In this document: positions 41,827 through 62,275 of the stretch, piece by piece
How the letters are laid out: each line of letters opens with the position of its first letter
Numbering within the stretch: position 1 is the stretch's first letter
Source: Grifola frondosa
Lineage: Eukaryota > Basidiomycota > Agaricomycetes > Polyporales > Grifolaceae
Assembly: GCA_001683735.1 (NCBI GenBank)
Contig: LUGG01000002.1
Coordinates: 930,001 to 994,000 of the forward strand
DNA length: 64,000 nucleotides
Reading direction: 5' to 3'
Notes under the pieces: model-generated
Database searches by the model: none
Told to the model about the DNA's origin: nothing
What the model saw: the letters and a program-made list of their open reading frames with translations, nothing else
Made by a program: the position numbers and the translations under genes

Positions 41827-43339
41827 ATGGATTCCTCACGAGCAGATGACGAATTTGCAGCCCAGCAACTTCAAGCCGCTCCAAATTATATACGAGGAGG
41901 CACGCCCCTCAAGATCTGCATGCCGACATTATACAAATCACCATCTGACCACCCACCTCATCCACGATGCATGATTCAACGTCGACAACTGGCGTATGAC
42001 ATGAGTGGCAAATGGGCGAAGATGACCACCGAGCTCTTCTTGGCGGCCATGCCAGTTCGATGCGAGAGGACGATGAGGCGACACCCCAAATGGACCAATA
42101 TGTTCAGCAAAATTCCCAAAACTGTGGTGCCCGAAGTTGAGTTGTATCCGGTCATGGTAAGTGCCGCTCCCATGCTTATTCCCATTTATTGGTCACTGAT
42201 ATTGTATGCAGTCGATGCTCTCACAGAACGAAAGGCTTGTCCGGGATATGTATTCAAACAGTGCGACACAAAGCCTGATCTGGACGACCCAGACTGCAAC
42301 AAGGTGGATCTCGCAATGTACAAGTCCGACGAGGCGCCCAAGGACGGCCGACCCCATTGGGCTTGACAGCGCATCTGGATTGAGTTGAAGAAGGATGGCA
42401 ATGATGACGACCCGTGGAGCGACGACAAGGACAGCGCATTTGAAGTCGATGCTGAGAACAAGGCCAAAATTCGAGGACAGCTCATCGCGTATGCAGAGAT
42501 GGCCATGAATCAACAGCAATGTACGCACCTCTATTCCGTGTTGGTAATGCACCACTTTGTGCGGCTTATCCGGTGGGACCGCTCTGGTGCGGTCGTCTCT
42601 GAAAAGTTCGACCTCAAGAAGCATCCCGAGACTCTCGGCATGTTCTTCTGGCAGTTTGCACATGCAACGGACGAGGGACAAGGATATGACCCGTCTGCAG
42701 AACTTCTGGGGCCTCGTACAAAGTTTTACCGGCTAATGGACAAGATGGCGGAGACAGAGCTAGATTACCCTTTTGATTACATCCAGGAGTTGTTCGACAA
42801 ATCGCTCACTGACAACTGGCCTTGGTACAACCTAACTGTCGAAGACGAGGAGAAAGGGACTCATTACTATTTGGTCGGGAAGCCGCTGAGTGTTGCACCT
42901 GGTCCAGTCGGTCGTGGAACTCGGAGCTATATCGCATGGAATGTAGAGGAAGCGAAGTTCGTGCACCTCAAGGCCAGTGGCGGTAGTCTCTGATCTTACG
43001 GATGAGGATGGAGCTCCACAAGGGGCGAACGAACAGCGCACGAACAATGTGGGCCAGGATGAAAAGCTCCAACCCGAGGAGCAAATCAGGACCAGGATGA
43101 GGAGCATGACCAGGAACACGACAAAGATCACAACGAGGACGAGGATCAGGATGAAGAGAAGCGCTCTGATAAAGAGCCCAACGAGGCGCAGGAAGAAAGA
43201 GCGGACGCCAACGGACGATGGGCACCCATTGGGAATGCGCAAGCTTCACTTGGAGGGGGAAATCTTGGCCTACCTGAATCACTGCAAGGTCCGAAACGTT
43301 CCCACCCTAGTTTGCCACGGAGATGTGGGTACACAACAT
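41827..43339 (+). pseudogene. FunK1 kinase, N-terminal half (split by element A)
   Basis: This is the 5' half of a fungal FunK1 protein kinase (Pkinase_fungal, PF17667), a family expanded in mushrooms. A TATA box (CATATATAA, about 41770) precedes the ATG. Landmarks: PGYVFKQCDTKPDLDDPDCN, KDGRPHW, KIRGQLIAYAEMAMNQQQ, FVRLIRWDRSGAVVSEKFD, an acidic Asp/Glu-rich linker, then EGEILAYLNHCKVRNVPTLV and CHGDVG. There is an in-frame TGA at 42364-42366 between PHWA and QRIWIELKK. One-base breaks also occur near 42210, 42975 and 43010-43150. The coding sequence stops abruptly at 43339, exactly where element A starts, and resumes at 58634 in the same frame: TQH joins EITVTQDIW. Confidence 0.85.
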
Positions 43340-43624
43340 CAGCAAAAGTGTCGAACTATTGGCTGACTTGCCAAGTCGCGGCCACAACTGCAAGGGAATT
43401 GCCGGGGAGGCGCGCGCTTGCCTAACTAGGTAAGTCCTTTGACATAGAGGTAGTATTTTGCCTAGCTTTGGAAGCATTTGCCATGTAGATAGCAGTTTGG
43501 AAATATATATATATTATTACCAGCCAGATCAAATTTGAATATGTATACAATCAATTGTCTGTTGGGCAGTAGTGCACGCGCTCAAGTCTGAATTCGATTG
43601 ACATGAAAACATAAGTCTGATACT

Positions 43625-46600
43625 TTACAGTCGCGCAAAGCCTTCCGTGCCGTACTCATCCTCTTGCCCATCGTCCTCGCCATTTTCCTCCCCATCTTCC
43701 ACATCCGACCTGCACTTATCCTCGTCCTCATCGCTGTTGCCGTCCTCACCATCGTCGGCATCCTCATCCGTAGGCGGCTCGCTGTCCGCGTCTTCATCCG
43801 TCTCGCCGTCCGCATCATCTTCATCCGCATCGGCATCCACATCTTCATCCGACGCGTCACTTCCCTTATCTTCTGTGTCGCCATCTGCATCTTCATCGGC
43901 ATCGGCATCCTCATCTCCCTCACTCTCCGAATTTTCGAGGACTGAAGCAATGTGATCGGAAGGTGGATGGATATTGAGGCCCATGCCTTTGTGGCCGACC
44001 CCACCACCATGGAACCGCATGAACATGTCGCGGTCTACAAACCTGGTGGAGTAGAATTAGAATATCATTAGAATAAAATGACTGTGGCCCGGATTACTTA
44101 CATATTCACGTAGTAATAGATCCAGTCCGACTTCGCTTGATTTGCTGAGCGCGATAGAGTGCGGAAGGGGTTCCTCGGCGCAACCGTGAGCAAACGCAGG
44201 AATGAGGTGGACTCCGCGAATCACGTCCGCAGGATCCACAAATCCAAAAGGGTCCAGGTCATCGACGTCCACGAATCCTATGCGAGGGAGGCGACGCGAT
44301 GAGAAGCCGCCGGGTGCTGTGAAATCGCGTCCGAACCATCGCACCCAGAGGAAATGCATTCTTTCCTCGGTTTCCACTCCTGATTGAGGGTGCATGAAGC
44401 ACGCGTTGACATGGAAAATCCCAATCACACGCGCATACCAGAATGGATGCGCGGCGACGCCATCTTGTTCCTCCTCGTTGGCAAGAAGCATGATATCGGC
44501 ATGCGTGCGGGGGTTGATCAAGTCTTGGTCGCACCGCAAATCATATGTTGTGTAGTTGATCTGCACCACGCGATGGCGGTAGATCCGATTCTTGGAAAAC
44601 CTGAGATTGTTCCGGGTATCACTGGAGAAGCTGTCGTCAAGCGGGGGTCCCATGAGCCATCGCAGCAAATGGTTCTTCAACCGAGGGATAAATGCCTTGT
44701 GAATAGATGTTAGCATTCAGAAATATAGTGACGAGTGAAAATTTTACCTTGAAAGCCGGATCCGCCTTGTTTTTGGGGATCCAAGAGGCTATATCCTCAT
44801 ACACGCGCTGTGAATCCGAGATATGATAACGATCTTGTGGAGAGCTGAAGGGAAGCTGGTCTTCAGGGTTGATGTCGTCGTCCGAGTCGCCTAAGTCCTT
44901 GTCCGCCAATGAGCTCTGAGCATCAAGTTGTTCTGTGGCCCTCGTCTGCACTTCGTCCACCCTTGATTTGATGCGACGCAATATTGCTGCACGCCGCTGG
45001 TGCTTTGCGATCTGTGAGGCAAAGCCGTTCTTGTTGGTGCGTATGTAATAGCGCTTGACATGCCGATGCTCTAGTTTGCCCTGGACCACCAAGGTTAATT
45101 AATTGCATCCGTTATCGAAAGGAACACTTACTATCTGGGTTGTGTAGTTGTCCGTCGTGCCGAACATCCGTACGCAGTTGGGATAATCAGCGAGAGCGTG
45201 ATACTTGTACGTCTCTAAGTTTAATTGTTTGATCTTGGGCCCGCCGGGGCTTTGCATTTCACAGCGGCTTTACTTGGAGTACTCTTGTTCGCGAGTGCGG
45301 CTGTTCGACGCCCACGGGCAGCTTCTTCTTTGGGAAGTTCACGGGTAATGTATTTCTTGCACGTCGTTTTCTTGAATCGGCGAACAGCGCTGCTGAGGGT
45401 GAGTACGGCGTTGTCGAAGGATGTCAAGGTAATGTCCATGTGTAATTGCAGCTTGGCAAGTCCATGCCATAAGGTGAGTTCGAAGAGAAGTGATGTGATT
45501 GCGGCGTTGTCCGCGCGGGGCAGCAGATCCTCAAACACGGGTAATACACACTGTAGTATGTGTCTGTAAATATCGGTGGATCGGGTATTCATGAACGGAG
45601 ACTTGCCTGAAGAATATCTTCATAGTCCCGAGCAGCGAGCTTCTTGAGCGCGGACACGTTGCCGCTGAATCGCCGAATTGTATCCCGTCCAAATGTGGGC
45701 ACAAGGCGAAACCTTGAAAGTGTCAGTGTAATTCTGACAGGATGAATATAATAGGTACATACCGTTTATTCATCTCCTGGATTTTATCCCCCAGCTGCGT
45801 ACAAAATACGAAGAAGGTGTATGAAAATTGATTTCCATACACCCAACTCGAATTCATGCATCAGATCCGGCACAAACATGGAGTAGAAGTTGAATCCATG
45901 TTCAGCAAGGTGGATGGAGAAGGCACTCTACGTGAGCAAAATCATCAGTTCAGTCAGGCTCGTCGCACAGGAATACATACCCTTGTAGGCATCAACGATT
46001 TTGCCGCTAAAACCCTCGTGATAACCATGCTTGTAAGTTTGCATTTCTTCTCGAATATCCATCCGCGTGTCAGGTTGATAACTCGTCGGACCTCCTCGTC
46101 GTCTTCTCGCGTCTTCGCACGTCGATACATATCCGCTGTGGTGCCCATCGCGGAGATTTTGGATTTTGGCATGAGGCAGCGAGGACATGGGCATGTAGAC
46201 ATGTATTTGATACATGCGAGGAGGACTCTGGTGGGCGCAAGCAGTGTCAGAAGGGAAGGATCAAGAAATATATATATTTACTCACTTCTCGGGATAATCT
46301 GCGGAGTATATAAAGAATCGCGGGAAGAGACGGCGAAGAATTCCGTCGCCACACAAGATAATTATACCGTGCACATAGGCGTGCATGAATTTTGGATCTA
46401 GAAGAAGAAGCCAGATGGCCTGCATTAGTTCACGCTTGCAGAATGTCCAAAATGCCGACGTCGCGCTGTCGCCATGTAATTCAGCGTAAATATCTTGAAG
46501 TTCATCTGGTAGCTTGGGGAAGCCTTTAGCAAATGCGTGATAATAAAATAAGCAAAACGGCATACCACAGGTATGTAAGCGAGGTGCTCAGCGGCAAATG

Positions 46601-48028
46601 ACGTTGGTTTTCCGCGGGTATACTTGGACAGATTGCCAAAATATACGTATATTGGCCACAGAGATGCCGTCCCGAAACTTGCGAGGTGAGTCGAATCCGA
46701 CCAAAGCATCACTGGGGCCACCGCGTACTCGAGCGCGGGGTCGTCTCCAGGCTCCCGAGGCAGCGCTTGAATTTCCGCATCCTCTTCGATCATCGCGTTC
46801 GAATTGTAGACTTCGGAATATATTCGAATGGGTGAATCGCACCCAGTCTCCGAGTTGGGCTGCCAGAAGAGGTGGTGAGGGACGAAGTGATATCCACAGG
46901 CAGAGGGGTGCTGGAACGCCGCACATATGACTTCCAGAAGAGGGCGATAGTGAATGCCACGAACTGTGACCAGCGGGGCCGCCGCTTCGTTGAGGTAACT
47001 GTGGCCTTCCTTCGGGAGACGGATCTGAACGGATCCATCCAGCCAGCCATCGTCCGCAGAGAAAGGAGAGCATGTCTTCCCATAGGCGTCAAGGCGCGCG
47101 AGCTCGCAGGTAACACTAAAATTGCGCAAGTGCGCAGGATCAAAATCAGGCTCCTGCATAATGTCGATTATGCTCATTAGGTTGGCCTGCGATTTTGTGT
47201 TTAAATCGTTATACTGCCAATTCATCATGCGGAAGGTGGTGATGTTTTCAAAAGGAGCGAAGGGGGGATGTTCGGATTCAGAGGTGGATGCTGTGGAACC
47301 AGGGTTGGTGCGACTTTGTAGGGGCGCACGCCGAGTGGAACTGATGTGGCTGGAGGTAAGTGTAGGGGCATCGCAGAGCTGGACCAGATCAATTCTTGCA
47401 TCAGGGTCCAGCGGTGGTTGTCTGGTGTAGCATTTGTATAGTCCGAATGAGTTTGGTTTGGTATCGAAGTGCATTGGCGGGTCTTCAGGTGCATTAGCCT
47501 CCTCGGGTGGTGGGGAAACGTGTGGTGTGGGCACATGGGTGGAATGAGGATCCTCTGCGGCATCAGGAGCAATAAAATGCCCTCTTCGTGGACGCGGGCG
47601 GGCGGGCCTGTTTATATGCGCAGCAAGACCGCCGACAGAAGTTGGCAAAAAGTCTTGCAATGCTTTGGGAAATATGCGCCTGCAACCAGCGCGGCTAACT
47701 GTGGCAGGATCTACAGGTACGTCCTGCTGAATGTCAAGCTCAGGCTCGACATCCAGACACTAAATCATATATAATAATTAGAGACGCCCCCAAAAAACCA
47801 TAGATAAGAACACACCTCATTATGGACTTCTATAGCATCATTTATATCATCATCCTCATCCGTTCGTCGCAATTTAGCTGCTCTGGAGTTGTCTGCGTCC
47901 GCCTGGCGTTTTCGGTGCAACTTAAATGTATTTGACGTGAAGTTGCGAGATCCCTTGCATGTCTTGCTGTGAACTCTGAGTGCCTTGGTTGTCTTGAACT
48001 TTTCAGAGCATCCTAGACAGCCGACCAT
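43625..48028 (-). CDS. Plavaka-family transposase of element A
   Basis: This multi-exon transposase gene belongs to the Plavaka clade of fungal CACTA-like elements. The N-terminus MVGCLGC...H...C (residues 4-24) is a C2HC-type zinc finger, probably binding DNA. Conserved blocks follow in order: NITTFRMMNWQYNDLNTKSQ, LRNFSVTCELARLDAYGK, YHFVPHHLFWQPNSE, VMLWSDSTHLASFGTASLWP (the region of the catalytic core), RRLFPRFFIYSADYPEK, ACPRCLMPKSKI-like text, MHEFELGVW-type text, GELEHRHVKRYYIRTNKN, IYRHRVVQINYTTYDLRCDQ, WYARVIGIFHVNACF, and DMFMRFHGGGVGHKG. The tail is a long Asp/Glu/Ala-rich stretch ending YGTEGFARL. Around ten introns are needed; I did not map all of them, so activity cannot be judged. 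The 3' end lies 285 bp inside the element's left terminus. Confidence 0.8.
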
Positions 48029-48322
48029 GACCAGAGAAGCCAGAATTATGCAACGAAATGAATAGTCTATATGCGCGACACGACATGCAAGTCATGTGCA
48101 CGACTAAATGTCACACTCTATACGCGTTAGGTCACATTCACATGACCTAACGCGCTCTTGATCTCTAAGTCCTTCCTGCTTACCCTCTTCTTTGTGCCGT
48201 GACATCCATCTCATATTCCTATTCATAGCTTGACTCAAATTATATTCTTCTCAAAGTCCTTTTTTCTACAGTTGTACCACTCACATCCTTCCGCTTGCTT
48301 TTCTGTTACTTCACAACTCACC
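48029..48322. promoter_or_regulatory. Divergent promoter of element A, with hairpin
   Basis: These 294 bp separate the transposase (-) and DUF6698-like (+) start codons. A perfect 12-bp hairpin (CGCGTTAGGTCA at 48123-48134, complement at 48143-48154, loop 8 nt) lies within 100 bp of the transposase start. A TCTTCTTTG pyrimidine tract near 48185 could serve the plus-strand gene. Confidence 0.6.
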
Positions 48323-50166
48323 ATGCCCCGCCACCAGCGTGCAATGGCTTCTATGCCGAAGAGAAGAGTCGGCAATCCTATTCCCGCTCCCGTTCCCGCT
48401 CCCGCCGCTCGTGCCCCCAACCAGCTCCCCTGCCTGAAAACTCTCTCTCTAGCAGTGATGATGACACAGAACCGGAAGGTAAGTGCATCATAAATTGCCG
48501 CATATATGCACTTATATGCACTTACCTTTATGCTTTGAAGAGCCCGCAGAGCCAGAATTTTCTGGCTTTAGCGGAAAGCGTCAGCATTCTCATGAAGTAC
48601 CAGAGCCCACACCCAAATGCGGCCGTACATCTCGAATCATCGCTCAGGTGGCTAACGCACTTAAAAAGTATGTCTTTGTTGTTTATATGCGCGGATGCCG
48701 TGAATTACTAATATAATATTCCGTAGAGGCACTGCAAACAAGTCAGCGCAGGCCTTGCGCAACGCCGCACGTCTTATTCCACGATCGATTGATCCATTCA
48801 TCCTCTCCCTGCAGGTATTTCAAGTCGGCATGTGCCCCGATGATTACATTTCTAGGTCTCCATCACCTGTCGATGAAGATGAGGATGACGTCATTGAGCA
48901 GGAAAAGTTGTAAGTGCGCATATATTCAACACATTTCTTACTAACTACAAATCTATGCTAGGTGCGCCGAGAAACGCACTGAAATGGAAAGACAGTACAA
49001 CATGCTGCTCACCCTAATTCCAGGGTTGAAAAAGGAGATCAAGCGACTCGAGGATGATGAGCCTGATGCGCTCCATACCCTCGCGGACTTTGTGAGTGTT
49101 CCTTAGAATTTAGACTGTATTTACCTTATTGCATTTTAGCTTGACGATATGGCGCACAAGGCGCGTTCTGACGACGTGGGTGCGCTACGCTACATGGTCC
49201 TCAACTACCTTCCCAAAGGCCCGAAGTATCCCCCGTTGGACACGGACTTGAAGGACAGGCGCGGATTCGAGAACGTGACGACTGGACGATTGCTCTGCCC
49301 CAGGACTCATTGTCCGACTTCGATAAGGACCCTGATGTGTACCTACTCAATACAAGATTCATTCGATACTGACCTCGTGGCATAGATTTTGCGCTTCCGT
49401 TCGTGACGGGGACACTGAAGTAACCGCTCACGACTACCCTTCCTTCCTATACGATCAAGAAGAATATGACCCGGAGGAAATGGACAAGGGTTTCCTTCGC
49501 AGTGCTCTCCTCGCGATGGTGCGTTTTGGCCTTCATTCTTAATTCCTACTCATGATTACTTCTAGTGCTTCAAGTCCCTTTTTCTCGGGCCCCGAAATGC
49601 GAAGAAGCGTGCAGGCGAGAAGGAGAATGGGCCCGGCAAACCGCCCTTGGCGCAGAAGTACAACATAACTTCCGTTACCCCTCGGCACATCGCCTATGTT
49701 GCCGTCTTGGTAAGTTTCGTGTTTATTGTTGAGTCTCGAGCTGATTTCTTCTGTTGGTAGGTGCGCTTCATTCTGAACAGCCAAGCGCAATGGGCCCAGA
49801 TCGACAGCAACTTCGATGCCAGCGAATTCTTCCATATCCTCGTCGGTCTCTTCGAAGGGCCTTCAAGTGATCCACTGTGGAGTAAGGCTACGATTGCCTG
49901 GTGGAACAAGTAAGTGTCCGTTGTATCCTAAGCTTGACATCACACTGACATTTGCATGTAGGGAGATATTCAACAAAGCAACATTACAGAAGGGCACCCG
50001 AGAGAATGGCTCTCACTCACGCAAGTCTGCACACGAAAAACTCGCTGAACAGCGTGCAGCACGGGCTGCAGCGCTGACACGGACCGGAAGCTCTAACTCA
50101 GGTAAATCATTGAACTTGTCGACGAATCGACCAGAACATTTATTGACACTTCTTCTAGCGGCTTAA
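48323..50166 (+). CDS. DUF6698-like accessory protein of element A
   Basis: The product resembles the Agaricomycete DUF6698 family, proteins of unknown function often found beside transposon genes. Exons are separated by 50-60 nt introns. Blocks are RLIPRSIDPFILSLQV, CAEKRTEMERQYNMLLTLIP, ARSDDVGALRYMVLNYLP, SFLYDQEEYDPEEMDKGFL, SVTPRHIAYVAVLVRFILNS and FFHILVGLFEGPSSDPLW. A basic C-terminus (HEKLAEQRAARAAALTRTG) ends SNSAA. The Asp/Ser-rich N-terminal part (SLSSSDDDTEPE) is one base out of frame with the MPRHQRAMASMPKRR start, and the break falls in a C5 run near 48415. It lies head-to-head with the transposase and inside the same element, so it is probably an element-encoded helper (compare TnpA of plant CACTA elements), but that role is inference. 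Confidence 0.72.
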
Positions 50167-50179
50167 ACCTCTCCTTCAT

Positions 50180-50908
50180 CAGCGAAGTCCCTCCGCTGTT
50201 ATCTACAATTATATGTAAATACATACCCCAAAATTGAATCTAAGACCGCGTGATCCTTGTAAACGCCTCAAAACCTGACATATGGGTTGGCAACATCTGC
50301 CAGCCAATAGAATCGATCACCGAGCGCTTGTACCCGGATGCAATATCTTGCCGACCACATATCCTGCTATTACCAATGTTGACAAGAAGCACAATATATT
50401 CAGGTAAGGTTAGGCACCAGATTTGAAGAACCCGGTACGTATCTCCTAATCATATCTAGGGCATTTCAAATGGCCGGTGCATGATTTCCAGTGGTCAGAA
50501 GTGCTTCTCATGTTTTGCGGCTCTCGTGTTTTCATAGATTAGAATACCAATAATACGTTTCATTTTATCCGGAGCTCCGAGTATGTAATTACAGCTACAA
50601 ACATGCAATTACCTACAATCTAAGTGAGCAATTGAAGAAGTAAACGAGGCGCGAGCATGCAGAGCAAAGTCAGTGAACCGCCAGCGTGGGGAGCGGGAAG
50701 TGGAACAGGGAGAGCTTCAGAGAGGAGCGACGGGCAAAGCGTGAGCAAGATCGCAAAGTGTGAACAAGAGAGCGCAGCATGCACAAAACAGCAAAGCGTG
50801 AGTAAACAGTGTTGCAGAGAGGAGCGAAGAACAGAGCGAGACAGGACATCTGAGTGAATATATTTCAGTGAAGCGCGAGACGGACGGAGAGTGCAAAAAA
50901 CTAACTTA
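50180..50908. other. Left subterminal region of element B
   Basis: About 730 bp without a gene, between the element terminus and the 3' end of the DUF6698-like gene. Includes GTTGGCAACATCTGCCAGCC and a purine-rich stretch (about 50650-50880) of repeated GAGCGA, AAGCGTGAG and AGCAAAGCGTGAG motifs. Confidence 0.5.
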
Positions 50909-52991
50909 CTAGGCTTCCGGGCTCTGCGCCGGCTCGATGTCTTCCTCAGAGCGCTCCCCTTCGACGTCCTCATCCTCATGGGGGGATACATAGCCATAAT
51001 AGTCGTCGTCGTCATCGTCGTCGTGGTCCAGCGGCTGTACCTCTTAAGGTCCGCTGTGTCTTCATCGTCGCTGGCGACACCGTAGGGAGAGCGCATCTTC
51101 GCGTAATGCCTCTCCGCTGCTTGCTTCTTCTGTCGGGCAGCGCGCTGAGCGGCAATGGAGGCAACTTGATTGCCACCTGGGCCATCGTCGTTGTCTGAGT
51201 CGTCGGTGTCTGAGTCCGCACAACCGAAGACTTGCCTGGAGCATATGTTAGTTAGTAGAATGTCAGTGTAGCTACGATACGTACAGATTCCACCATCTTA
51301 ACATTGCTGCCGCCCACTCCGCATCATCAAATAAATTGATGATGTTCTTGTAGAAGTCGGCTCCGATAAATTTGTTGTCGTTGGCACTCCAACCGTCTTG
51401 ATCATTCAGAATGAAGCACGCCTGGTAAGGAAGTTGGTGAGCAAGCGTTCAATGCGAATACTTGTATGTACGAGCACCGCGATGTACGCAATACTTCGCG
51501 GAGTGACCGTCGTCATTCCATTCAACTCCGAGATCAGTTTGCGTCCGCCCTTCACCATCCATGTAGGTGCGGACATGGCGGTGCGCTTGCCCGTGTACAC
51601 ATGACAGAAGCACTGTCAAAGGGAATTATAAGTAGTCTGGATATCAAAATATGAAAACGAGAACTCACCCGGATGAGATACTCCCCCATGCAGAGCCCCG
51701 CGTCCATGTTGTTCAGATCAAACTGACCGTCGGCATATAGGAAAGTGGGGAAGTCGTTTGCGCGGATCCTGATGTTGCCCTCCCGAACCTTGTGACGAAA
51801 CCTAGTCCACATGAAGAAGTAAGTCCACGATTACACTATGGAAGGACTCACAATTCGGGATCGTCATCGTACTGGTCCAGCATCTGGCGTGGACATAGAA
51901 GACGTCCGGTGGCCGGGTCTTTGAAGCCGCGGTAGGTCTTCTGATTCCCGGCCATGTAGCGAATAACTTTCCCTCCCGAAGGGTTACATCCTCGATGTAC
52001 TGCATGGAATCGTACCTCAGCGCACCCAGATCATCCGAGCGTGCGAAACGTGCATGAGCGTCGAGCTGGCAAAAGGTATTAGCAATAACGTAGGAGTAGA
52101 AATCAATATGAAACAACTTACGAAGTGGCTGAGCATAAATATCCCAGTCGGGCTCTTCCTGAGGTCATCAAGAAGCTACCCATGAACGGAACCTTCTCGC
52201 AGAGATCGGCGAAGGCAGCCAAGAGTGCCACGATCTCTGCCACAACACTAGTGCATGAACAGGTTAGTATTGGTCCAAATGGGAAGATGAATTTACGCAC
52301 AACTGTTTGAACGCAGGCATCTCCAGCGGGTGGCCACAGGGTCATCGTCGTCGTGCAGGTTGACACCAAGGGAGATTACATGGAAGATGGGGAGGAAGGG
52401 GCTGTGCACGCGAAAGTAAAACCGTCCGGCGTCCTTGAGCACTGCGCCAGGTGAACAAGTCTCCCTGACAAAAAAGGTAAGCATACATGCACATATATTG
52501 GGAGAACTCACGTCAGGCTCCACCCCTTGCACTTGGAGATGCGAAGTTCGCGCATCACCTCGCGATAGAAGGGGTCGTATGTCGGGTTCCGATCATTGTA
52601 GGCGGCGCGATGCTCTCAGGGTCGGATAGCTCCGCATCATCTTCGCGGCGGCGGTGCATCGAAGCATTGCGGACCGGAGAACTGGGTGAGGTATCAGTCT
52701 GGCTTGAGGAAGTGGGAGGGCCGCCTGCAGGGAGGCGGGGACTGTCTGAGCGACGACGTCTTCCAAAACGTTCTGGCATGCATCCACGATGACCGGTATC
52801 TGAAGGATTGGGAGAGGGTTCTTGGGGCGCTCGACGAGGAGGAGATTCCACGCGCCTAAACCAAAGTGAGTAACCCGACATCTGCGGGGCAGAATGCGGG
52901 GAAGCTAATCTTGAATCTTCGCGTACCTTGCGCATCGATCAGCACCTGTGTAGGCGCTAGGCTTGGCTTTCTTGTTGATGCGGGAGCTCAT
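50909..52991 (-). CDS. DUF6698-like accessory protein of element B
   Basis: This is a paralogue of the element A helper, in the same position relative to its transposase. The start MSSRINKKAKPSAYTGADRC is followed by several exons: LCEKVPFMGSFL, ARFARSDDLGALRYDSMQYI, DFPTFLYADGQFDLNNMDAG, GLCMGEYLIR, TPRSIAYIAVLVHTS with a diverged following exon, and ILNDQDGWSANDNKFIGADF with YKNIINLFDDAEWAAAMLRW. The C-terminal tail is basic then strongly acidic (DDEDTADLK, SEEDIEPAQSPEA), stopping at 50909. The shared order of DDLGALRY, SFLY/TFLY and TPR(S/H)IAY blocks shows common ancestry with the A protein, but the sequences are well diverged, so the two elements are not a recent duplicate. Confidence 0.72.
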
Positions 52992-53290
52992 GGTGTTGGC
53001 GTCGGAAGAGGTGGAGAAAGCGTCGGATGAGGGCGGGATGAGAGCAAAGAGACGGCGGGGAGTTAGCGTACCAAGTCTCGTTGTATCCCAGCTTTTATAG
53101 CGTCAAGACATGTCAAAATGCATCTGGGGAAACCTTAAAGCATGCATCACGTGGACGCGATGCGTCTTGCTGGGGTTTGGGGTCCCAAAAGAGGAAGGCA
53201 TATATCCAAAGAATGCCTTCCTCTTTTGGGCATGACGGTATTATGCATCCTCCTTCATCGTTCATCGTGGTCTCGCTGCTATTAATTTTC
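52992..53290. promoter_or_regulatory. Divergent promoter of element B, with hairpin
   Basis: These 299 bp lie between the two divergent start codons. A perfect 18-bp hairpin (arms 53184-53201 and 53213-53230, beginning CCCAAAAGAGGAAGG; loop 11 nt) lies 60 bp from the transposase ATG. Confidence 0.65.
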
Positions 53291-56200
53291 ATGGTACTCA
53301 CCTGCGAGGGCTGCAACAAGCCTTTTGCCAAAGATGGCGCGTTGAAGCATCATCGGCCGAACTGCAAGCCATGGCAAAATCTCCTCAACGGTGGACTCAA
53401 GCGCGACCGAGAAAAAGCCAAGGCAGGAATTTTGCAGAGGAATGAGCACCTGCATTCCCTCAAGCTGCGTCGCATTGAGGAGGAAAAGGCAGCCGAAGAG
53501 GAATGGCAAAGGGCGCGCGAGGCGCGCGAATTTGAGGAGGTATGTAACGCATGTGGTGCAGCGTATATGCGCACTGAAATAAAAATAATATTTGTTTTAG
53601 TTACATATCCCTCCTGTTGAGGTCGTCCCAGAGCCAGAGGGAACATTCAGCAGATATGGTCGCAGACGAATCGCTCCCATCATGTTCAATGACTATCTGC
53701 CGACAAACCTGCGCGGCCTTCCTGCTCACATCACTCGTCCACCTCCTAAGCCTAAGTGCATCCGTGTCACTAAAGTTGCCCAGCCAGAGCCTCCAGAAAA
53801 TACGCCTCCTCGTCCAGAGTCCCCGACGCACGCTCCTGATCACATTGACTCTGCGCCGAATAACTTCGGAGTCTTCCGGCGCTATTTTGTTCGGCCACGC
53901 TCCGACCCGGAGGACGACCTCTCCCTGGATTCATTCGTGGATGCGCCCACACATGCAAAGGCACCTCGTGACCCAAGAGAGGTTGACCCGCTTTCTGGCT
54001 TTGGTTTCTCTGTCGGACACGCGCTCGACAAACTCAAGACCTCATTTGCTCCCTTCCTCAACGTTACTACATTCCGCTTAATGAAGTGGTACTATGCTTC
54101 TCCACACAAGTCTGCTGCCGACCTGGATCGTCTGGTCCAGGAAGTCCTCCTCGCCGATGACTTCGACTCCACGCACCTCAAGCATTTCAGCTCCACCCGA
54201 GAGTTGAAACGCATTGATAATTTCACTCAAACTGATGCGGCGTTCTCTGCGGCTGATGGCTGGCACGAGGAAATTATCAACGTCAAATTACCGAAGCGCG
54301 GAGAACACTGGGACTCCGAGACCGTGGCTCCCACCTTCGAGGTTAGAGGAGTATTTGTGCGCCCGATCATTGAGGTCCTCAAGGCATCCTTCCGTAATCT
54401 CTCATCTCGCCAGTACCACTGGGTCCCGTTCGAACTTTTCTGGCAGGCGGACTCCCCTTCTGGCACCACCCTCCGCCGGAGCACATTTATACTGATACGT
54501 ACAACTCGGACGCCATGCTCGAGGCGGACAAGGAAATACGTGCGCAGCCTCGAAACCCCGATGATTCCCCCGACGTCGAGTATTGTGTAGCCCCCATCCT
54601 AGTTTGGTCCGACTCTACACATCTTACTAGCTTCAGTTCCGCATCACTCTGGCCAATATATGCATTCTTCGGCAATCTCTCCAAGTACATGCGCGCAAAA
54701 CCAAGTTCATTCGCAGCACAGCACCTTGTGTACATTCCTAAGGTATGTTCCTCTACTTCGCTGACCATTCACACATACTGATGTCCGTCTCAAGCTGCCA
54801 GACTCTTTCCAGCAATTTTACCAATCCGTTTACGACTCGCCCGCTACCGTTGCTGTCATGCGCTTCGTCCGACGAGAGCTCATGCATGAAACTGGCTGTG
54901 CATATTGTCACCAGAATTTATGCATGCCTACGTGCATGGCATTCTCCTCAAATGCGGAGATGGAGTCTTGAGGCGCATGTTCCCCCGATTCTTCACTTAT
55001 TCGGCAGATTACCCAGAAAAGTGAGTCCCATTTGTTTTGAGCGGCTGTGGATTGGATCTGACATTTGCTTATTCAGAGTCTTAATTGCATGCATTCGCTA
55101 TTTCGCAGCGTGTCCTTGCACAAGTGCCACATCAAGAAATCGTATGTTCCCGCTATGGGGACATTTGTGGATTCACAGCGCCGCGCAAAGACTCGGCGCG
55201 ATGACAGACTTGTGCACCACAAGATTGCCCTTGTGCGTAAGTGGATTTTCGAAGATGGTTTGGACGTGGAGAGCACCGCGGTCAATCGTGCCTTGGCAGA
55301 GACGTCGCTCGCGCCTACTCGCGTAAGTGCTCAATTTTAATGCACGTCTTCCTGTATTCTCATATAACTGCAGAGTGCCTTCTCCATATGACTTGTGGAC
55401 CACGGTTTCAACCACTACAACATGCTTGTGCCCGACCTCATGCACGAGTTCGAGCTCGGGTCTTCAAGGCAATATTTACCCATAATCTGTGCCTTCTCAT
55501 TGCTCTAGGAGGGGACATCCTACAAAAGTTTGATGCTCGGTAAGTGCTTCATTGAATTATATTTACCCAGACTGATGAACTCCCCACAATGCCGCAGCTT
55601 CGTGCAAGTTCCTACGTTCGGGCGCGCACAATACGCAAATTTGGTGCCAATGTATCTGCAATGAAGAAGCTTGCTGCTCGGGACTTTGAGGATATATTAC
55701 AGGTGCGCTACATTCATTTATTCAACGTTGTCTCACTCCAACCTCGAATGTGCAGTGTCTTCTGCCCGTCGTTGAGAGCCTTTACCCAAGTGGCAAGCAC
55801 AACCGAATCGTCCTTGACATGTGCTTTGATCTTGCAGTTTGGCACGCGCATGCCAAACTGCGGCTTCACACAGAATCTACCCTCTCCCTTTTCGAGGCCG
55901 CCACAAAATCCTTGGGCGCGAGTGTACGTACATTCAAGAAGGTCGTCTGCGAGGCCTATGCCACCAAGGAGTTGCCTAAGGAAACTGCCGCAAGACACAG
56001 ACGCAGCGCCGCGCTTTCTGCCAAGGGCAAGGGGAAGGGGAAGATGTCCGGAGCTAATCCGAAGACCGTCACTCTGAATCTCGTCACCTACAAATGGCAC
56101 CGACTGGGGGATTATGTGCGTACGATCAGGCGGTTCGGGACCACACAATTATACCACTCAGATTGTAAGTGTGCCCAGATTTTCATTGTTTGATCAGGCT

Positions 56201-57819
56201 TATAATGCTATATTATAGGGCGAGCTGGAACACCGCCGGGTCAAGAAGTTTTACACGCGTACGAACAAGAACTTTCAGTTCAAATTCCAAATAGCAAGAC
56301 ATCAATGCCGCGAGGCTTTCTTACACAAACTGCAAGAAGAGGAAGCTGCCGTCCATGCCAATACCGTGACCGAAGAACAGGCCGTACATGTGAAGGCCCG
56401 CTCTAGCAAGAAACGTGGTTGCAAGACACCGCGGCGGGGAAAACGAAGCCAGATGCGCCTTCGATTCCAGGATTCGGAACCTCTGCCTGCTACCTCCCCT
56501 CGCGTTCACCACCACATCGCTGAAGATCAGCGCCACCACGTTGATATCAGCGGATTTGCAGCCGATAATGAGGATGACCCTGCATGCACAGTGCGTCCTA
56601 TCTCTCATCTGCGCTTCATTGAATAAACTGAGAATTTCCAGGACTTCGTGCGCAAGCTGGAGGAACATCTTCTCGCACGAATGACGGGAACTCTATATGA
56701 CAACCCTCCTCAACAATTCACGGACCACGAGCGCGACAGTATCCGCATTGAGCGGAATTGAATGTACATACACAAGGTGGTCCGCATCAATTATACCACC
56801 TACGACATGCGTCGTGCCCAGGACTCCATCAATCCTACTTCTCATCCCGACATCATAGACAGCCACCCTTTCCTCTATGCTCGAGTACTCAGCATCTTTC
56901 ACGTGAATGTCTCACGCATCGCAGTTGATCTACCACGGGAACCCGAGCCGGAACGCTTCGAGGTGTTATGGGTGCGCTTCTTCGAGCTGGACACTTCAGC
57001 GCCGGGCGGTTTCAACGCAAAACGACTTCCTCGCGTCAAGTTTGTTGACTATGAAGATGATGGCGCGTTTGCTTTCTTGGACCCTCAACAGGTCTTGCGT
57101 GGCGCTCACATCATTCCGGCCTTCAAATATGGGCGAACGGATGAATTGTTACCGATGCCCAGCATTGCACGGCAAGAGGACGAGGGCGACAAGGACTGGT
57201 ATTTCTACTATGTTGGCATGTACGTGATTTCTATGCCGCACTAATTATGACTATTCACTGACGCGCTATGACTCCTAGGTTTGTAGATAGGGACATGTTT
57301 ATGCGCTACAATGGTGGCGGAGTCGGCCACCGGTCTGGAAGTATCTACTCAACCGCAGCAAATCCACGAAATCGAGAAGAAGAACATCAGCAAAATGTCA
57401 ATTTGACTTACCATACTTTTGTGTCTTAAACGTACTTAAATGCACTTATTTGGGCGGCTAAAAACCCTTATGAGACCTCTTTTACGTCTTAATCGCTCTT
57501 ATTGGTGATAATTAAGAAAAAAAAAGAGAAATAAGACCTAAAAGTAAGTTCATAAGGGTTGTTTAAGAGCCATAAGTCAAATCGACGTTTTGCTGATGAA
57601 GGAGCGGTGGATGAAGAAGGAGAGGAGGAAGAAGAGGTGCTCGAGGAGCCTGTGGCTGAAGAGGGTGAGGAGCGCTCCGGTTCTGAGACGGAGGAGGAAG
57701 AAAATGACGAGGAGGAGGAGGACTCAGAGCATGAGCCATACTTGGGCCCTGAAGATGGCGAGGATGTAGCATGCGATGAGGACAACGACTGCGATGCGCA
57801 CGGTTTCAGTGCTCTGTAG
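53291..57819 (+). CDS. Plavaka-family transposase of element B (MITE-interrupted)
   Basis: This has the same domain order as the element A transposase. The N-terminal finger MVLTCEGCNKPFAKDG...HH...C is followed by a charged helix (KLRRIEEEKAAEEEWQRARE). Core blocks: FRLMKWYYASPHKSAADL, YHWVPFELFWQADSP, ILVWSDSTHLTSFSSASLWP, RRMFPRFFTYSADYPEK, MKKLAARDFEDILQ, LVTYKWHRLGDYVRTIRRFG, GELEHRRVKKFYTRTNKN, VVRINYTTYDMRRAQDSINP, VLWVRFFELDTSAPGGF and DMFMRYNGGGVGHRSG. The acidic tail ends GFSAL. A one-base break near 54465-54480 separates ADSPSGT from EHIYTDTYNSDAMLEADKE. A 208-bp MITE (57388-57595) cuts the C-terminal acidic region and introduces a stop; without it REEEH joins EGAVDEEG in frame. 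Confidence 0.8.
57388..57595. mobile_element. 208-bp MITE with CAGCAAAA termini
   Basis: It has inverted ends CAGCAAAATGTCAATTTGAC (left) and CAGCAAAACGTCGATTTGAC (right, inverted), identical at 18 of 20 positions, and AT on both sides (57386-57387, 57596-57597). The interior is AT-rich with no coding potential. Terminal motif and target duplication match elements A and B, so it is probably a non-autonomous element mobilised by the same transposase family. Confidence 0.82.
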
Positions 57820-58074
57820 TGCTTGTACTTGCAGTGCCGGCAATTAATTAGATTTGTTTCGAGTTCAAATAGTATTTAAATATATTCTGTGCTACGTGAT
57901 TACAAAGTGCCGCCTGCATAATATACGCAATAGCATACACGCACAAGACAAACGCGACTTGATGAGTGCTTACCATATCTGGTATGACGCTCAGCGTCTG
58001 GTAGCCTCATGGCTTACCTGACAAGAGGAGCACGTGTCTTGTAATCCTTATCCTAGGTACGACTTTTCGCTGAT

Positions 58075-58631
58075 GTTCTTGCCGCCTCATATATTCTTGT
58101 CCCTCGCTTCTCTGACCACGGCCTTCAATCTTGCTCAGCTCTCATTTTCGTGCGCTCTCGCCGCTATGTGCCTTTCTCCACTATATCACTTTATCATGCT
58201 CCGCTGCTTGTTCCCTGTCTCCCACTCCGCGCCATCGTTGTCTGCTACCATGCGCACTACTTATTGCGCTTCTCGTGCCTGCTATGTATTATACGCGTCA
58301 ATAAATATACTGCATATTGTGTCATTTAACAGTGTGATGCAAAAAAACACCTACCTTTGCCAAATCAGCCTCGATGGCAAATCCTCAGCTTTCCGGCATA
58401 TTTTGCAAACTCCACCTTGCATTGGAAGCCTTTGCAATGTTAGCCTTGCTTGCAAAAGGATGCCTCGGTTGCACGGCATCCAAAGCCTTGCACGTCATGT
58501 GATTGATTGTATGTTATCATAGGTGCCTTATCGGGCCTGGCAAATTCACTCCCGCACTTGTCAAATTTGCACCGCAAGATTAAATTTACATTTGTATGTA
58601 AAGCTATCTAAGGTGCGTGCACAATTTGCTG
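58075..58631. other. Right subterminal region of element A
   Basis: This is the part of element A beyond nested element B. It has no gene. TTGCC, TTGCAA and GGCAA motifs recur at about 58360-58550, mirroring the TTGCC cluster at the left end. Confidence 0.55.
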
Positions 58632-58633
58632 AT

Positions 58634-59329
58634 GAAATCACTGTAACGCAGGACATCTGGAGGGACATGCCACTGAGCCTTCGAAGTGCCTGTATTAGTG
58701 AGGATTCGGAGGGTGACAAGCGCTTTCCGCCCGTTAAACTCATCCACTACCGTATGGTCGAAGCGGAGGTCGGGAAGCCATTGGGCGAATTCGAAAGCGG
58801 CCGTGATCTGGTCAAATACATACACGATTGTGTCGTCGGTAAGTCGTCATTCCAGAAGCGCTGGATCGTACGCTGATTTGTACCTATAGCTCACGATGAC
58901 GCTGTGAACATCGCTCGTATTCTACATCGTGATATCAGTTCTGGAAACATGCTCATGTTTCCTCTCAAGTGCACATATGTGAATGGCTCGAAGAGGTGGC
59001 TGTGGAAGGGGCTATTGAACGACTGGGAGCTCTCGAAACCCATCGCTCAACCAGGAACAGCCGCAGAGGCTCGGAGGGCCGATCGTACGGTGAGAATACG
59101 GTTTCCTTGCATTTTCGCACTCACACTCATCTTATGGATGTCGTCTAGGGAACTTGGCAATTTATGTCAAAAAGCATCCTCACCGACAAATTCCGGGCTC
59201 CTACGGTCCAGGACGAACTCGAATCGTTCTTTTATGTTCTCCTCTACTTCGGAGTCCGCTACTTGACGCATAACTGTGTGGATGTCGGAAATTTCGTTCG
59301 AGACTTCTTCGACAACTTCACGTTCAACA
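58634..59329 (+). pseudogene. FunK1 kinase, central catalytic part
   Basis: This continues the kinase begun at 41827. GKPLGEFESGRDLVKYIHDC ends an exon at about 58840. After a 51-nt intron comes AHDDAVNIARILHRDISSGN with the catalytic HRD, then LLNDWELSKPIAQPGTAAEA, where DWE stands in the DFG position as is usual in FunK1. A further intron (GTGAGA...GTCTAG) joins ADRT to GTWQFMSKSILTDKFRAPTV and DELESFFYVLLYFGVRYL. The exon breaks at DNFTFN exactly at the left end of the next insertion (59330). Confidence 0.85.
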
Positions 59330-59507
59330 GTAGAGTTTCAGTTCGACGGATGCATCCGTCACGTAAGTCCAATGAGGAATGGATGCATTCAGCACATTAC
59401 ATTAATGAGTCTGTTAGGCACTTACCAGATACATCCATTGCTAAACAGATACATCTGTTCGTCACAGATGCATCCGTCTCATTGATTATATAATCTCTCA
59501 ATAAAAA

Positions 59508-59592
59508 TGCAACTAGCAGGGTTGGAACTTGTGACTCTTCAAATCACATAAACATAATGTAGTATTGAGAGTAACCATTACACCATATAAGT
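59508..59592 (-). other. tRNA-like unit, left arm
   Basis: On the minus strand it reads ACTTATATGGTGTAATGG (A-box-like) to GTTCCAACCCTGC (degenerate B box), ending TTGCA, followed by TTTTT (59507-59503). It has a 4-bp pairable variable-arm segment (GTGA/TCAC). Its length, 85 nt, is identical to the right-arm unit. Confidence 0.55.
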
Positions 59593-61463
59593 CATAATTT
59601 ACACTTACCTGTATATAATATGTCATATGTTCGGAAATATATGATATGTTTTGGTTTCAGCCACTGTATGTTCCTTGCTTTATTTCTCCCTCAATTGTCC
59701 ACATATTGTCTTCACCTGAGCGTTTCTGAAAGTGATCATTTAGTAGAACTGGAAGATATATATATCATCTTATGTTATTACAATAGAAACATACCATTCT
59801 GGACAGTCCTTCCAGAATGTTCTGCTGAATTCCTCCCCCAAATATTCACCAAATATCTTTGTTTCTTTGTTTCTTTGGTCACATATATTTTCTAATTTAA
59901 TGTTTTAATTTCATTCAACAGAATGTGTCATGAAAAATATATTATTTCTAGTATATCCAGGCTCAGCCACACTGAAATTCTTTCCCCTGCTCCTCCATCA
60001 ACTTTGCATAGATTATCTTCATTTAACATTTGTCTTACTCCTAGATATCTACCCTTTTATAATCTGTGTAACACAGTACTTCATAGAATGATACAATTTT
60101 GTTTCTTCCTACTCTGCTGTCTGATATTCATCCCAAGTTGAGAAATATATACATTGTTAATTGATGTGCCATAGAATATCTTTGAATGATGAAATTTGTC
60201 CAAATAAGATGCTTTTTATATTAAATAATCTGTTCATTTCTCACTTCACAACACACAAAGCAATTTTCAGAGAGATGATAGAAATAATTCCTCCACTGTT
60301 TTGAGATAGAATTTGACTCTAATTTTAAGCGGGTTATTGTAATCTATGGGTATCAATTGAGGCTTGAAAATGAGCTCTCAATGATGCTTATCAGAGAAGA
60401 AATGAGATACTAAAATCCTTATCAGTTTCACCAGTTGATTACACAATTCTACTATTAAATCAAAGTAAATAAAAGATCAAATTATAGTGCCTAATTAAGA
60501 AACAGTATAGCTTCAAAACAAGCTCAAGAATATAAGATTTGGTGAGGAACTGGGGGGGCAATTGATGGATCAGTGTATCTTGCATCTGATTCACTGTACA
60601 GGTGACTTGAGCTCGGAATAGCAGCATTCAGCCACAATTGGATGTTCCAAAGGTAATCTCTTCATATCTCATCCACTTTTTCATGGATTCTTCTGATTTT
60701 TGTGGTATATTGTAGGGGTGTATTTGTAGTATGTTTTAACATGATATATAATTTAATAGCAGCTATAAATATTTCTAGGAAGGAAGCATTGCAAATGAGT
60801 GATTCTATTACACTGCTGTGACCACAGTGAATAACAAGAACATGGAGAGCTTATTTTGATGGCATAAGACACATAACATTGTGCAAAAGAGAAAACAAAA
60901 AGCAAGTAAATGTACACAGAGATATTGCAAGATCAGTGTGAGAACTATCATCTAGGGTTATTCTGCACATTGTAAAGTGAATATGAGCCAGATTCATTTC
61001 ACATAAATGTCATCATATTCAGACATAATGCATCTTTCAGATGATGCCTCATGCATATGGATTGGTTGAGTATTCACTTCAAAATTTGGGGTGGATCTCA
61101 ACTAGTAAAGTGGGGCAGATAAAATATTATTGCTGTATGGAGCTCTCTGTTATATAGATTATAAAAGGAAAGACATTTAGAAGTAAGGAGAATCTGAAAT
61201 AAAGATAAACCATGCAGAATTGATGGAGGAGCAGGGAAGGAATTCTAGTGTGGCTGAGTCTGATGACATATCAGAAATGATATATTCTTCATGGCATATT
61301 TTATTAAACAAAATTTAGAACATTACATAGGAAATATATGTGACCAAGAGAACAAAGAAATCAAGAGATTTGGTGAATATTTGGGGGAGGAATTTAGCAG
61401 AACATTCTGGAGTGGCATGGTAAATATGGATGTTATAATGTGTGCATATCATTAAAATACAAA

Positions 61464-61548
61464 GCCTCTGTGGTGTAGTGGTTAGTTGCATGAATGTATT
61501 ATGTTGATGTGTTTCAGCTGGTCCTGGGTTCAAGTCCTGCTGGTGGCA
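61464..61548 (+). other. tRNA-like unit, right arm
   Basis: It reads GCCTCTGTGGTGTAGTGG (A box) to GGGTTCAAGTCC (B box) and ends TGGTGGCA, then TTTTT (61549-61553). Positions 1-7 (GCCTCTG) pair with the 3' TGGTGGC at six of seven positions including wobbles, and the T stem pairs partly. The internal part does not form a clear anticodon arm, so it is probably tRNA-derived rather than a working tRNA. Confidence 0.6.
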
Positions 61549-61681
61549 TTTTTAATCATTAATTATATAATTCATACGGATGCATCCTTCTTTCATGTAG
61601 TTTGGATGCATCCTGATGCATCCATGTCTCATTGGACTAATGTGCCGGATGCATCTGTCGAACTGAAGCTGCTCTTCAACA

Positions 61682-62275
61682 ACAGTGAATATATTGCGGA
61701 TTGGCCAAGCAATTGGCGATGACAAGTGGCAAGGTTACATTCTCCAATGAGAAGGAACTTCAATTTTCTGGCGACGATCGGGTCGCACACAACCCCTTCA
61801 ACGAGCTCATTGCTACGATGTTGTCGTGGTTCCATGGACGATATTTTGTAGAGACGCAGCGGCGGCGGCCTGATTTGTCATCTGGCGGTACACTCATACA
61901 GACTCCAGATTCGGACCAGCTACCTATCGACAAATACGACATCGTAGGGGACCAAACACTGCAAGATGAGGATGAAGATGAACCGCCGGCGAGACCTTCG
62001 AATCTCCCGAAGAATTTGAGAGGACGCTCGCTACCAGGAAGAAGGCTGCTGCGCAGTTGGATGGACATCGCGCAATACGCAAATTGTTGTCAAAAGCCAT
62101 CAGACGAAAGGATTGGCCAGTCGAGGACAAATTTGGAGATCAGCTGCCAAAGAACTATTGTCCTACAAGGACACGCAAGAGCAAGGACGAACCCAAAAAT
62201 GCGAAACGGCCTCGGGATGAGCTTGCTGATGCTGACGCGGAGTATTTTCCGAGGAAACGTCGCAGAGGAGGGTAG
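61682..62275 (+). pseudogene. FunK1 kinase, C-terminal part
   Basis: It resumes after the insertion as NSEYIADWPSNW, in frame with DNFTFN upstream. KVTFSNEKELQFSGDDRVAH, MLSWFHGRYFVETQRRRPDL and a Glu/Asp-rich linker follow. ERTLATRKKAAAQLDGHRAI leads to a basic tail (KDEPKNAKRPRDELADADAE) ending PRKRRRGG, a probable nuclear localisation signal typical of FunK1 C-termini. One-base breaks occur near 61720 and 62020. With two large insertions and an early stop the gene is inactive as it stands. Confidence 0.82.

What the first reader, a model, noticed from the sequence alone, without database searches (positions are those of the whole stretch)
41827..62275. Four transposons stacked in one FunK1 kinase gene, with the order of insertion readable
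The kinase is cut at 43339/58634 by element A and at 59329/61682 by the inverted-repeat element. Element B lies inside A, and a MITE lies inside B's transposase. At three of the four junction pairs (A, MITE, inverted-repeat element), dropping the insert and one target duplication rejoins a protein frame on paper: TQH-EITVTQDIW, REEEH-EGAVDEEG, TFN-NSEYIADW. B sits just behind a stop codon. Insertion order must be A, then B, then the MITE.
Basis: partly seen in the sequence, partly recalled or inferred. Interest (0 to 1): 0.85.

Follow-up and report, generated by a model that had tools for sequence, protein, structure and literature searches.

The report
Nested transposons in a dead kinase
In the edible mushroom Grifola frondosa, a decayed kinase gene holds two separate insertions, one of which is a three-layer stack of related Plavaka-type jumping genes; the stack is real but ordinary, and its most useful by-product is a likely second protein for this transposon group.

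Summary
Four real insertions lie in a FunK1 (PF17667) kinase pseudogene of Grifola frondosa. Relatives in the same genome show each empty site. Boundaries: A 43337-58634, B 50177-58075 (inside A), MITE 57385-57598 (inside B's transposase), inverted-repeat element 59330-61674. A, B and the MITE end CATCA..TGATG with 2-bp target duplications, the published PlavakaB signature. The inverted-repeat element is unclassified and non-coding, with 7-bp duplications in 6 of 7 full copies. The order A, B, MITE is the simplest reading but not forced: B could have carried the MITE in, or A carried B. The inverted-repeat element cannot be ordered. The kinase also carries point lesions. New point: A and B each pair a transposase with a divergent DUF6698 gene. 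In this genome 39 of 66 DUF6698 loci lie within 3 kb of an A-type transposase (38 divergent), against 0 of 66 for 47 hand-picked other Plavaka loci. DUF6698 is probably the second PlavakaB protein; its role is unknown.

The parts
41827..43336 (+). FunK1 kinase pseudogene, 5' part (last AA is the A target duplication)
   Evidence: PF17667 E 3e-12 on 42367-42993; in-frame TGA 42364-42366
43337..58634 (.). Element A, PlavakaB-type transposon, 15298 bp with B inside (7397 bp without B and one TT)
   Evidence: termini CATCAGC..GCTGATG, TSD AA; empty site in L069
43625..48100 (-). A transposase region (Plavaka, PF18759); ends approximate
   Evidence: D, D, C(2)C, H(3)H, E in order at 46703-45841
48323..50166 (+). 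A second gene, DUF6698 (PF20414), annotated A0H81_01957 (P0001)
   Evidence: stop 50164-50166
50177..58075 (.). Element B, PlavakaB-type transposon, 7899 bp with the MITE
   Evidence: copies on C3, C6, C7 at 95-97% over their main match; TSD TT; B-empty A-relatives
50912..52992 (-). B second gene, DUF6698; ends are my reading of the frames
   Evidence: PF20414 E 1.3e-9, genome rows at window 51278-51803
53292..57819 (+). B transposase region (Plavaka), cut by the MITE; ends approximate
   Evidence: PF18759 E 3e-10 on 54398-54781
57385..57598 (.). Plavaka-type MITE, 214 bp
   Evidence: family matches run 57385-57598; 2-bp TSD in 10 of 12 full-length copies including this one
58635..59329 (+). 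FunK1 pseudogene, middle part (58635-36 = second AA; 59323-29 = first TTCAACA)
   Evidence: PF17667; L069 alignment
59330..61674 (.). Inverted-repeat element, 2345 bp, no long ORF of its own
   Evidence: 7-bp TSD in 6 of 7 full-length copies; arms
61675..62275 (+). FunK1 pseudogene, 3' part (starts with second TTCAACA; 1-nt frameshift near 61693)
   Evidence: L069 alignment

Best explanation
A decayed member of the FunK1 kinase family was hit independently at two places by cut-and-paste DNA transposons. At the first site a two-gene PlavakaB element (A) inserted with a 2-bp target duplication; a second PlavakaB element (B) landed in A 10 bp past the stop codon of A's DUF6698 gene; a 214-bp PlavakaB-type MITE, presumably moved in trans by a Plavaka transposase, landed in B's transposase. 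At the second site a non-coding inverted-repeat element inserted with a 7-bp duplication. Shown: boundaries, duplications, empty sites, family membership of the inserts by termini and TSD. Inferred: the order A-B-MITE, trans-mobilisation of the MITE, and that DUF6698 works with the transposase.
For: Empty sites for all four. Termini CATCA..TGATG and 2-bp TSDs for A, B, MITE, the PlavakaB signature in PMC12730594 (passages read). Pfam Plavaka and FunK1. Nearest-copy divergence fits A old, B younger: A left part K2P 13-24% to six relatives (right end 4-16%, three relatives), B 1.3% to the C3 copy. No composite copies in the fetched loci. DUF6698 linkage.
Against: Nearest-copy divergence is only a bound on insertion time; the MITE's nearest copies (2.4%) are further off than B's nearest (1.3%), so divergence gives no separate support for MITE last. 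All evidence is from one assembly, no reads. The C6 B copy has one changed terminal base (CTTCA); one IR copy (L004) has no TSD; 2 of 12 MITE copies lack a clean TSD. The direct junction searches for composites did not complete.
Confidence: 0.9

Rival explanations
1. Same four inserts but a different history: B with the MITE already inside moved into A, or A with B inside moved into the kinase.
For: Nesting is equally compatible; a MITE-bearing B could be mobilised in trans by other Plavaka copies (inference).
Against: C3, C6, C7 copies of B lack the MITE; 0 of 29 fetched MITE copies are flanked by B and none of 9 fetched loci with B sequence is flanked by A at the B site. Genome-wide junction searches did not complete.
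Confidence: 0.12
2. Assembly artefact: halves joined from different loci or collapsed repeats.
For: Repeat-rich region, single assembly, no reads available.
Against: All four inserts carry matching target duplications and family termini; flanks match one paralogue in order.
Confidence: 0.02
3. A and B are one composite or symmetrical element with two transposase/DUF6698 pairs, not two nested elements.
For: The gene order is mirror-symmetrical (tnp- DUF+ DUF- tnp+).
Against: B occurs alone with both termini and TSDs on C3, C6 and C7, and A-relatives read across the B site.
Confidence: 0.01

Closest known systems
PlavakaB DNA transposons (CMCT clade; PMC12730594, passages read)
   Same: Termini 5'-CATCA..TGATG-3', 2-bp TSDs, Plavaka transposase with D, D, C(2)C, H(3)H, E in A.
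   Different: Carry DUF6698 as second gene; the word DUF6698 does not occur in that paper's main text. A TET/JBP gene was not specifically searched for in A or B.
FunK1 fungal protein kinases (Pfam PF17667)
   Same: Pieces match the profile; a relative with long open frames lies on C6 (L070).
   Different: Broken by two insertion sites, a nonsense codon and two frame changes.
Two-gene DNA transposons such as Nuwa of the PHIS group (transposase plus Myb/SANT protein; passage in PMC12730594) and plant En/Spm (TnpA/TnpD, recalled)
   Same: Transposase plus a second protein inside one mobile unit.
   Different: DUF6698 has no convincing relative among solved structures by sequence (best E 0.026, a designed protein) and its model has no PDB fold match at E <= 0.001.

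Membership tests
PlavakaB | Termini CATCA..TGATG | tested here: met
   A, B, MITE in the window; the C6 copy of B has CTTCA at one end
PlavakaB | 2- or 3-bp TSD | tested here: met
   AA, TT, AA in the window; B 4 of 4 copies (TT, GA, TG, GT), MITE 10 of 12 copies
PlavakaB | Plavaka transposase | tested here: met
   PF18759 over cut-off in A (43.7 bits) and B (40.3 bits)
PlavakaB | C(2)C and H(3-4)H between second D and E | tested here: inconclusive
   All in order in A; in B the C(2)C between D and E is not found in this copy but CTQC/CSQC is seen in the C3 and C7 copies
PlavakaB | Position in transposase phylogeny | not tested
   No tree built; the best Plavaka loci of the genome score up to 431 bits, far above A and B, whose own places are not among the rows listed
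FunK1 kinase | PF17667 match | tested here: met
   E 3e-12 for one piece; three further pieces 5e-4 to 9e-4, below the curated cut-off alone; three other pieces no match
MITE | Short, non-coding, multicopy, TIRs shared with a transposon, TSD | tested here: met
   214 bp, 40 places scored including this one, some partial, CATCAGC TIR, TSDs
hAT (for the inverted-repeat element) | 8-bp TSD | tested here: not met
   7-bp TSD in 6 of 7 copies
Kyakuja (for the inverted-repeat element) | 7-bp TSD with CA..TG termini and no TIR | tested here: not met
   7 bp met, but ends GTAGAG and CTGCTC and long TIRs
hAT7 (for the inverted-repeat element) | hAT transposase | not testable with these tools
   element is non-coding; no autonomous partner was identified; the 23 end matches were not examined one by one

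The most novel reading that the evidence does not exclude
DUF6698 is the dedicated second protein of PlavakaB transposons: an almost all-helical protein of no known fold, encoded divergently from the transposase inside the mobile unit, perhaps acting like the DNA-binding partner proteins of other two-gene transposons.
Probability: 0.7. Interest if true: 0.45.

Novelty: new member of a known kind. Interest (0 to 1): 0.3.

Why it matters
Nested transposons in a pseudogene are, to my knowledge, common in fungi, so the stack itself is ordinary. It does give a clean worked case with all four empty sites in one genome, and it yields a testable function area for DUF6698, a Pfam family of unknown function for which a search of the held library found no paper. 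At least one of these genes is annotated as a host hypothetical protein (A0H81_01957), so the link would correct gene annotation in mushrooms.

Tried and rejected
tRNA-like motifs in the inverted-repeat arms (box A/B look-alikes recognised from memory): ARAGORN with introns and Rfam found no tRNA, dropped. hAT or Kyakuja membership for the inverted-repeat element: rejected on TSD length or termini. Termini of further PlavakaB families from loci in hand: ends not found in the loci. DUF6698 by sequence against solved structures: best E 0.026, a designed repeat protein. Fold search: nothing at E <= 0.001. An alignment across the B site against L025, taken in the wrong orientation, was meaningless and was replaced. 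PMC9674265 (passage read) mentions one Plavaka deletion, not relevant here. Searches for nested transposons and for FunK1 with transposable elements gave listings only.

Full report
Source. The window is G000:C2:930001-994000 of a 39.06 Mb genome in 64 contigs. The DUF6698 protein of element A matches A0H81_01957 of Grifola frondosa on a contig of 3,563,620 bases, the length of C2, so the window is from this edible mushroom.

The kinase. Of seven kinase-region pieces scanned, four match Pkinase_fungal PF17667 (one at E 3e-12, three at 5e-4 to 9e-4) and three do not. Related loci are many: 89 matches to one piece in the genome. The closest is C2:913101-913709 (83% aa; 86.5% DNA over 1059 bases), fetched as L069, and a relative with long open frames on C6 was fetched as L070. 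The window copy has an in-frame TGA at 42364-42366, a frame change between the pieces at 42367-42993 and 42947-43366 (one frame in L069), and a 1-nt deletion near 61693 against L069. It is a pseudogene apart from the inserts. L069 is itself damaged (see noticed).

Empty site of A. L069 reads GGTACACAGATCACTG; the window reads GGTACACAA, then A, then AAATCACTG. One AA gives the register of L069.

Empty site of the inverted-repeat element. L069 has TTC AGC AGT GGC GAA TAT; the window with one TTCAACA has TTC AAC AAC AGT GAA TAT. Seven full-length copies, this one included, are in the fetched loci; 6 show 7-bp duplications, L004 does not; L008 is cut on the left and was not counted.

Empty site of B. 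Copies of B lie on C3 (97%), C6 (95%) and C7 (95% and 98% in two pieces, with an internal gap). A-relatives L036 and L035 align straight across 50176/58078, and L024 across it with small gaps further on.

Empty site of the MITE. The C7 copy of B reads GAGAAGAAG-AAGGAGCGG without the insert; the C3 and C6 copies also lack it. So the peptide is REEE-GAV.

Family. A, B and the MITE share CATCAGC..GCTGATG ends. TSDs: window A AA, B TT, MITE AA. All 4 B copies have a 2-bp TSD (TT, GA, TG, GT), the C6 copy with CTTCA instead of CATCA at one end; of 12 full-length MITE copies, 10 have one. Kojima 2025 (PMC12730594, passages read) gives CATCA..TGATG and 2 or 3 bp for PlavakaB. A's transposase has the D, D, C(2)C, H(3)H, E motifs in order; in B the C(2)C between D and E was not found.

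Order. Nested position gives A before B before MITE only if each jumped into its present host at this locus. Composite copies elsewhere were not found: 0 of 29 other fetched MITE loci (of 39 other places scored) have B flanks, and 0 of 9 fetched loci with B sequence have A next to the B site. No row listed spans these borders, but that list also lacks the window's own place, so it may miss long matches. Junction searches did not complete. Divergence to relatives: A left part K2P 0.13-0.24 over six loci, A right end 0.037-0.16 over three, B 0.013-0.038 over three, MITE 0.024-0.049 over ten. B's nearest copy is 1.3% away, so B and its MITE most simply came here after that split. The inverted-repeat element is 94-98% identical to its six other full-length copies and cannot be ordered by nesting. 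The K2P values printed for it mix in off-diagonal repeats and are not used.

Second gene. B's minus-strand gene matches DUF6698 PF20414 and A's plus-strand gene does too (rows at window 49149-49916). Each element is therefore a divergent pair. Over the genome I clustered 150 listed DUF6698 rows into 66 loci, 98 transposase rows found with A's transposase into 61 loci, and 47 other, high-scoring Plavaka loci as control. Within 3 kb: 39 of 66 DUF6698 loci have an A-type transposase (38 of 39 divergent), 0 of 66 have a control Plavaka. Within 6 kb: 44 and 1. Within 10 kb: 51 and 1. Within 15 kb: 56 and 5. Against: 10 of 66 have none within 15 kb, lists were truncated, control loci were picked by hand, and that the A-type loci are PlavakaB rests on likeness to A, not on a tree. 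B at C2, C3, C6 and C7 has DUF6698 rows inside both termini; for other families the ends were not reached.

DUF6698 protein. 16 proteins including the window's own P0001, all from basidiomycetes by the names shown (taxonomy recalled). AlphaFold model of P0001: mean pLDDT 72, 280 of 454 residues at 70 or more, almost all helical, residues 1-84 below 50. No PDB fold match at E <= 0.001. A search for DUF6698 in the held library gave 0 papers.

Verdict. The stack is real, carefully read by the first stage and ordinary in kind. The corrected boundaries and the PlavakaB identity explain the inner stack; the inverted-repeat element stays unclassified. The DUF6698 link is the part worth following.

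Noticed in passing
L069 (C2:911200-914500, minus strand): The nearest FunK1 paralogue has its own insert of about 374 bp with an 8-bp duplication CACTGAGC and TAGTGTTGC ends (hAT-like by recalled features), and a retrotransposon-like stretch upstream.
   Followed up: partly
L008 left end: A copy of the inverted-repeat element is cut next to sequence with the same GCAACACTA end as the hAT-like insert in L069.
   Followed up: no
L071 (C7:1138500-1141200): A relative of the inverted-repeat element (72% over 289-2085) has inverted arms of about 915 bp that are 99.6% identical, and they run to the edge of the fetched stretch.
   Followed up: partly
window 59500-59600 and 61465-61550: Both arms of the inverted-repeat element hold motifs that look like RNA polymerase III box A and box B (recalled motifs); no tRNA was called.
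   Followed up: yes
G000 C2:896582-900230: Another FunK1 gene appears split (rows 896582-896791 and 899832-900230), with a stretch matching the inverted-repeat element (896868-897258) between its pieces.
   Followed up: no
G000 C6:1063000-1490000: A large cluster of FunK1 matches.
   Followed up: no
C3:1747887-1750460: A stretch of 2.6 kb bounded by A's two ends with AA on both sides, probably a deletion derivative of A.
   Followed up: partly
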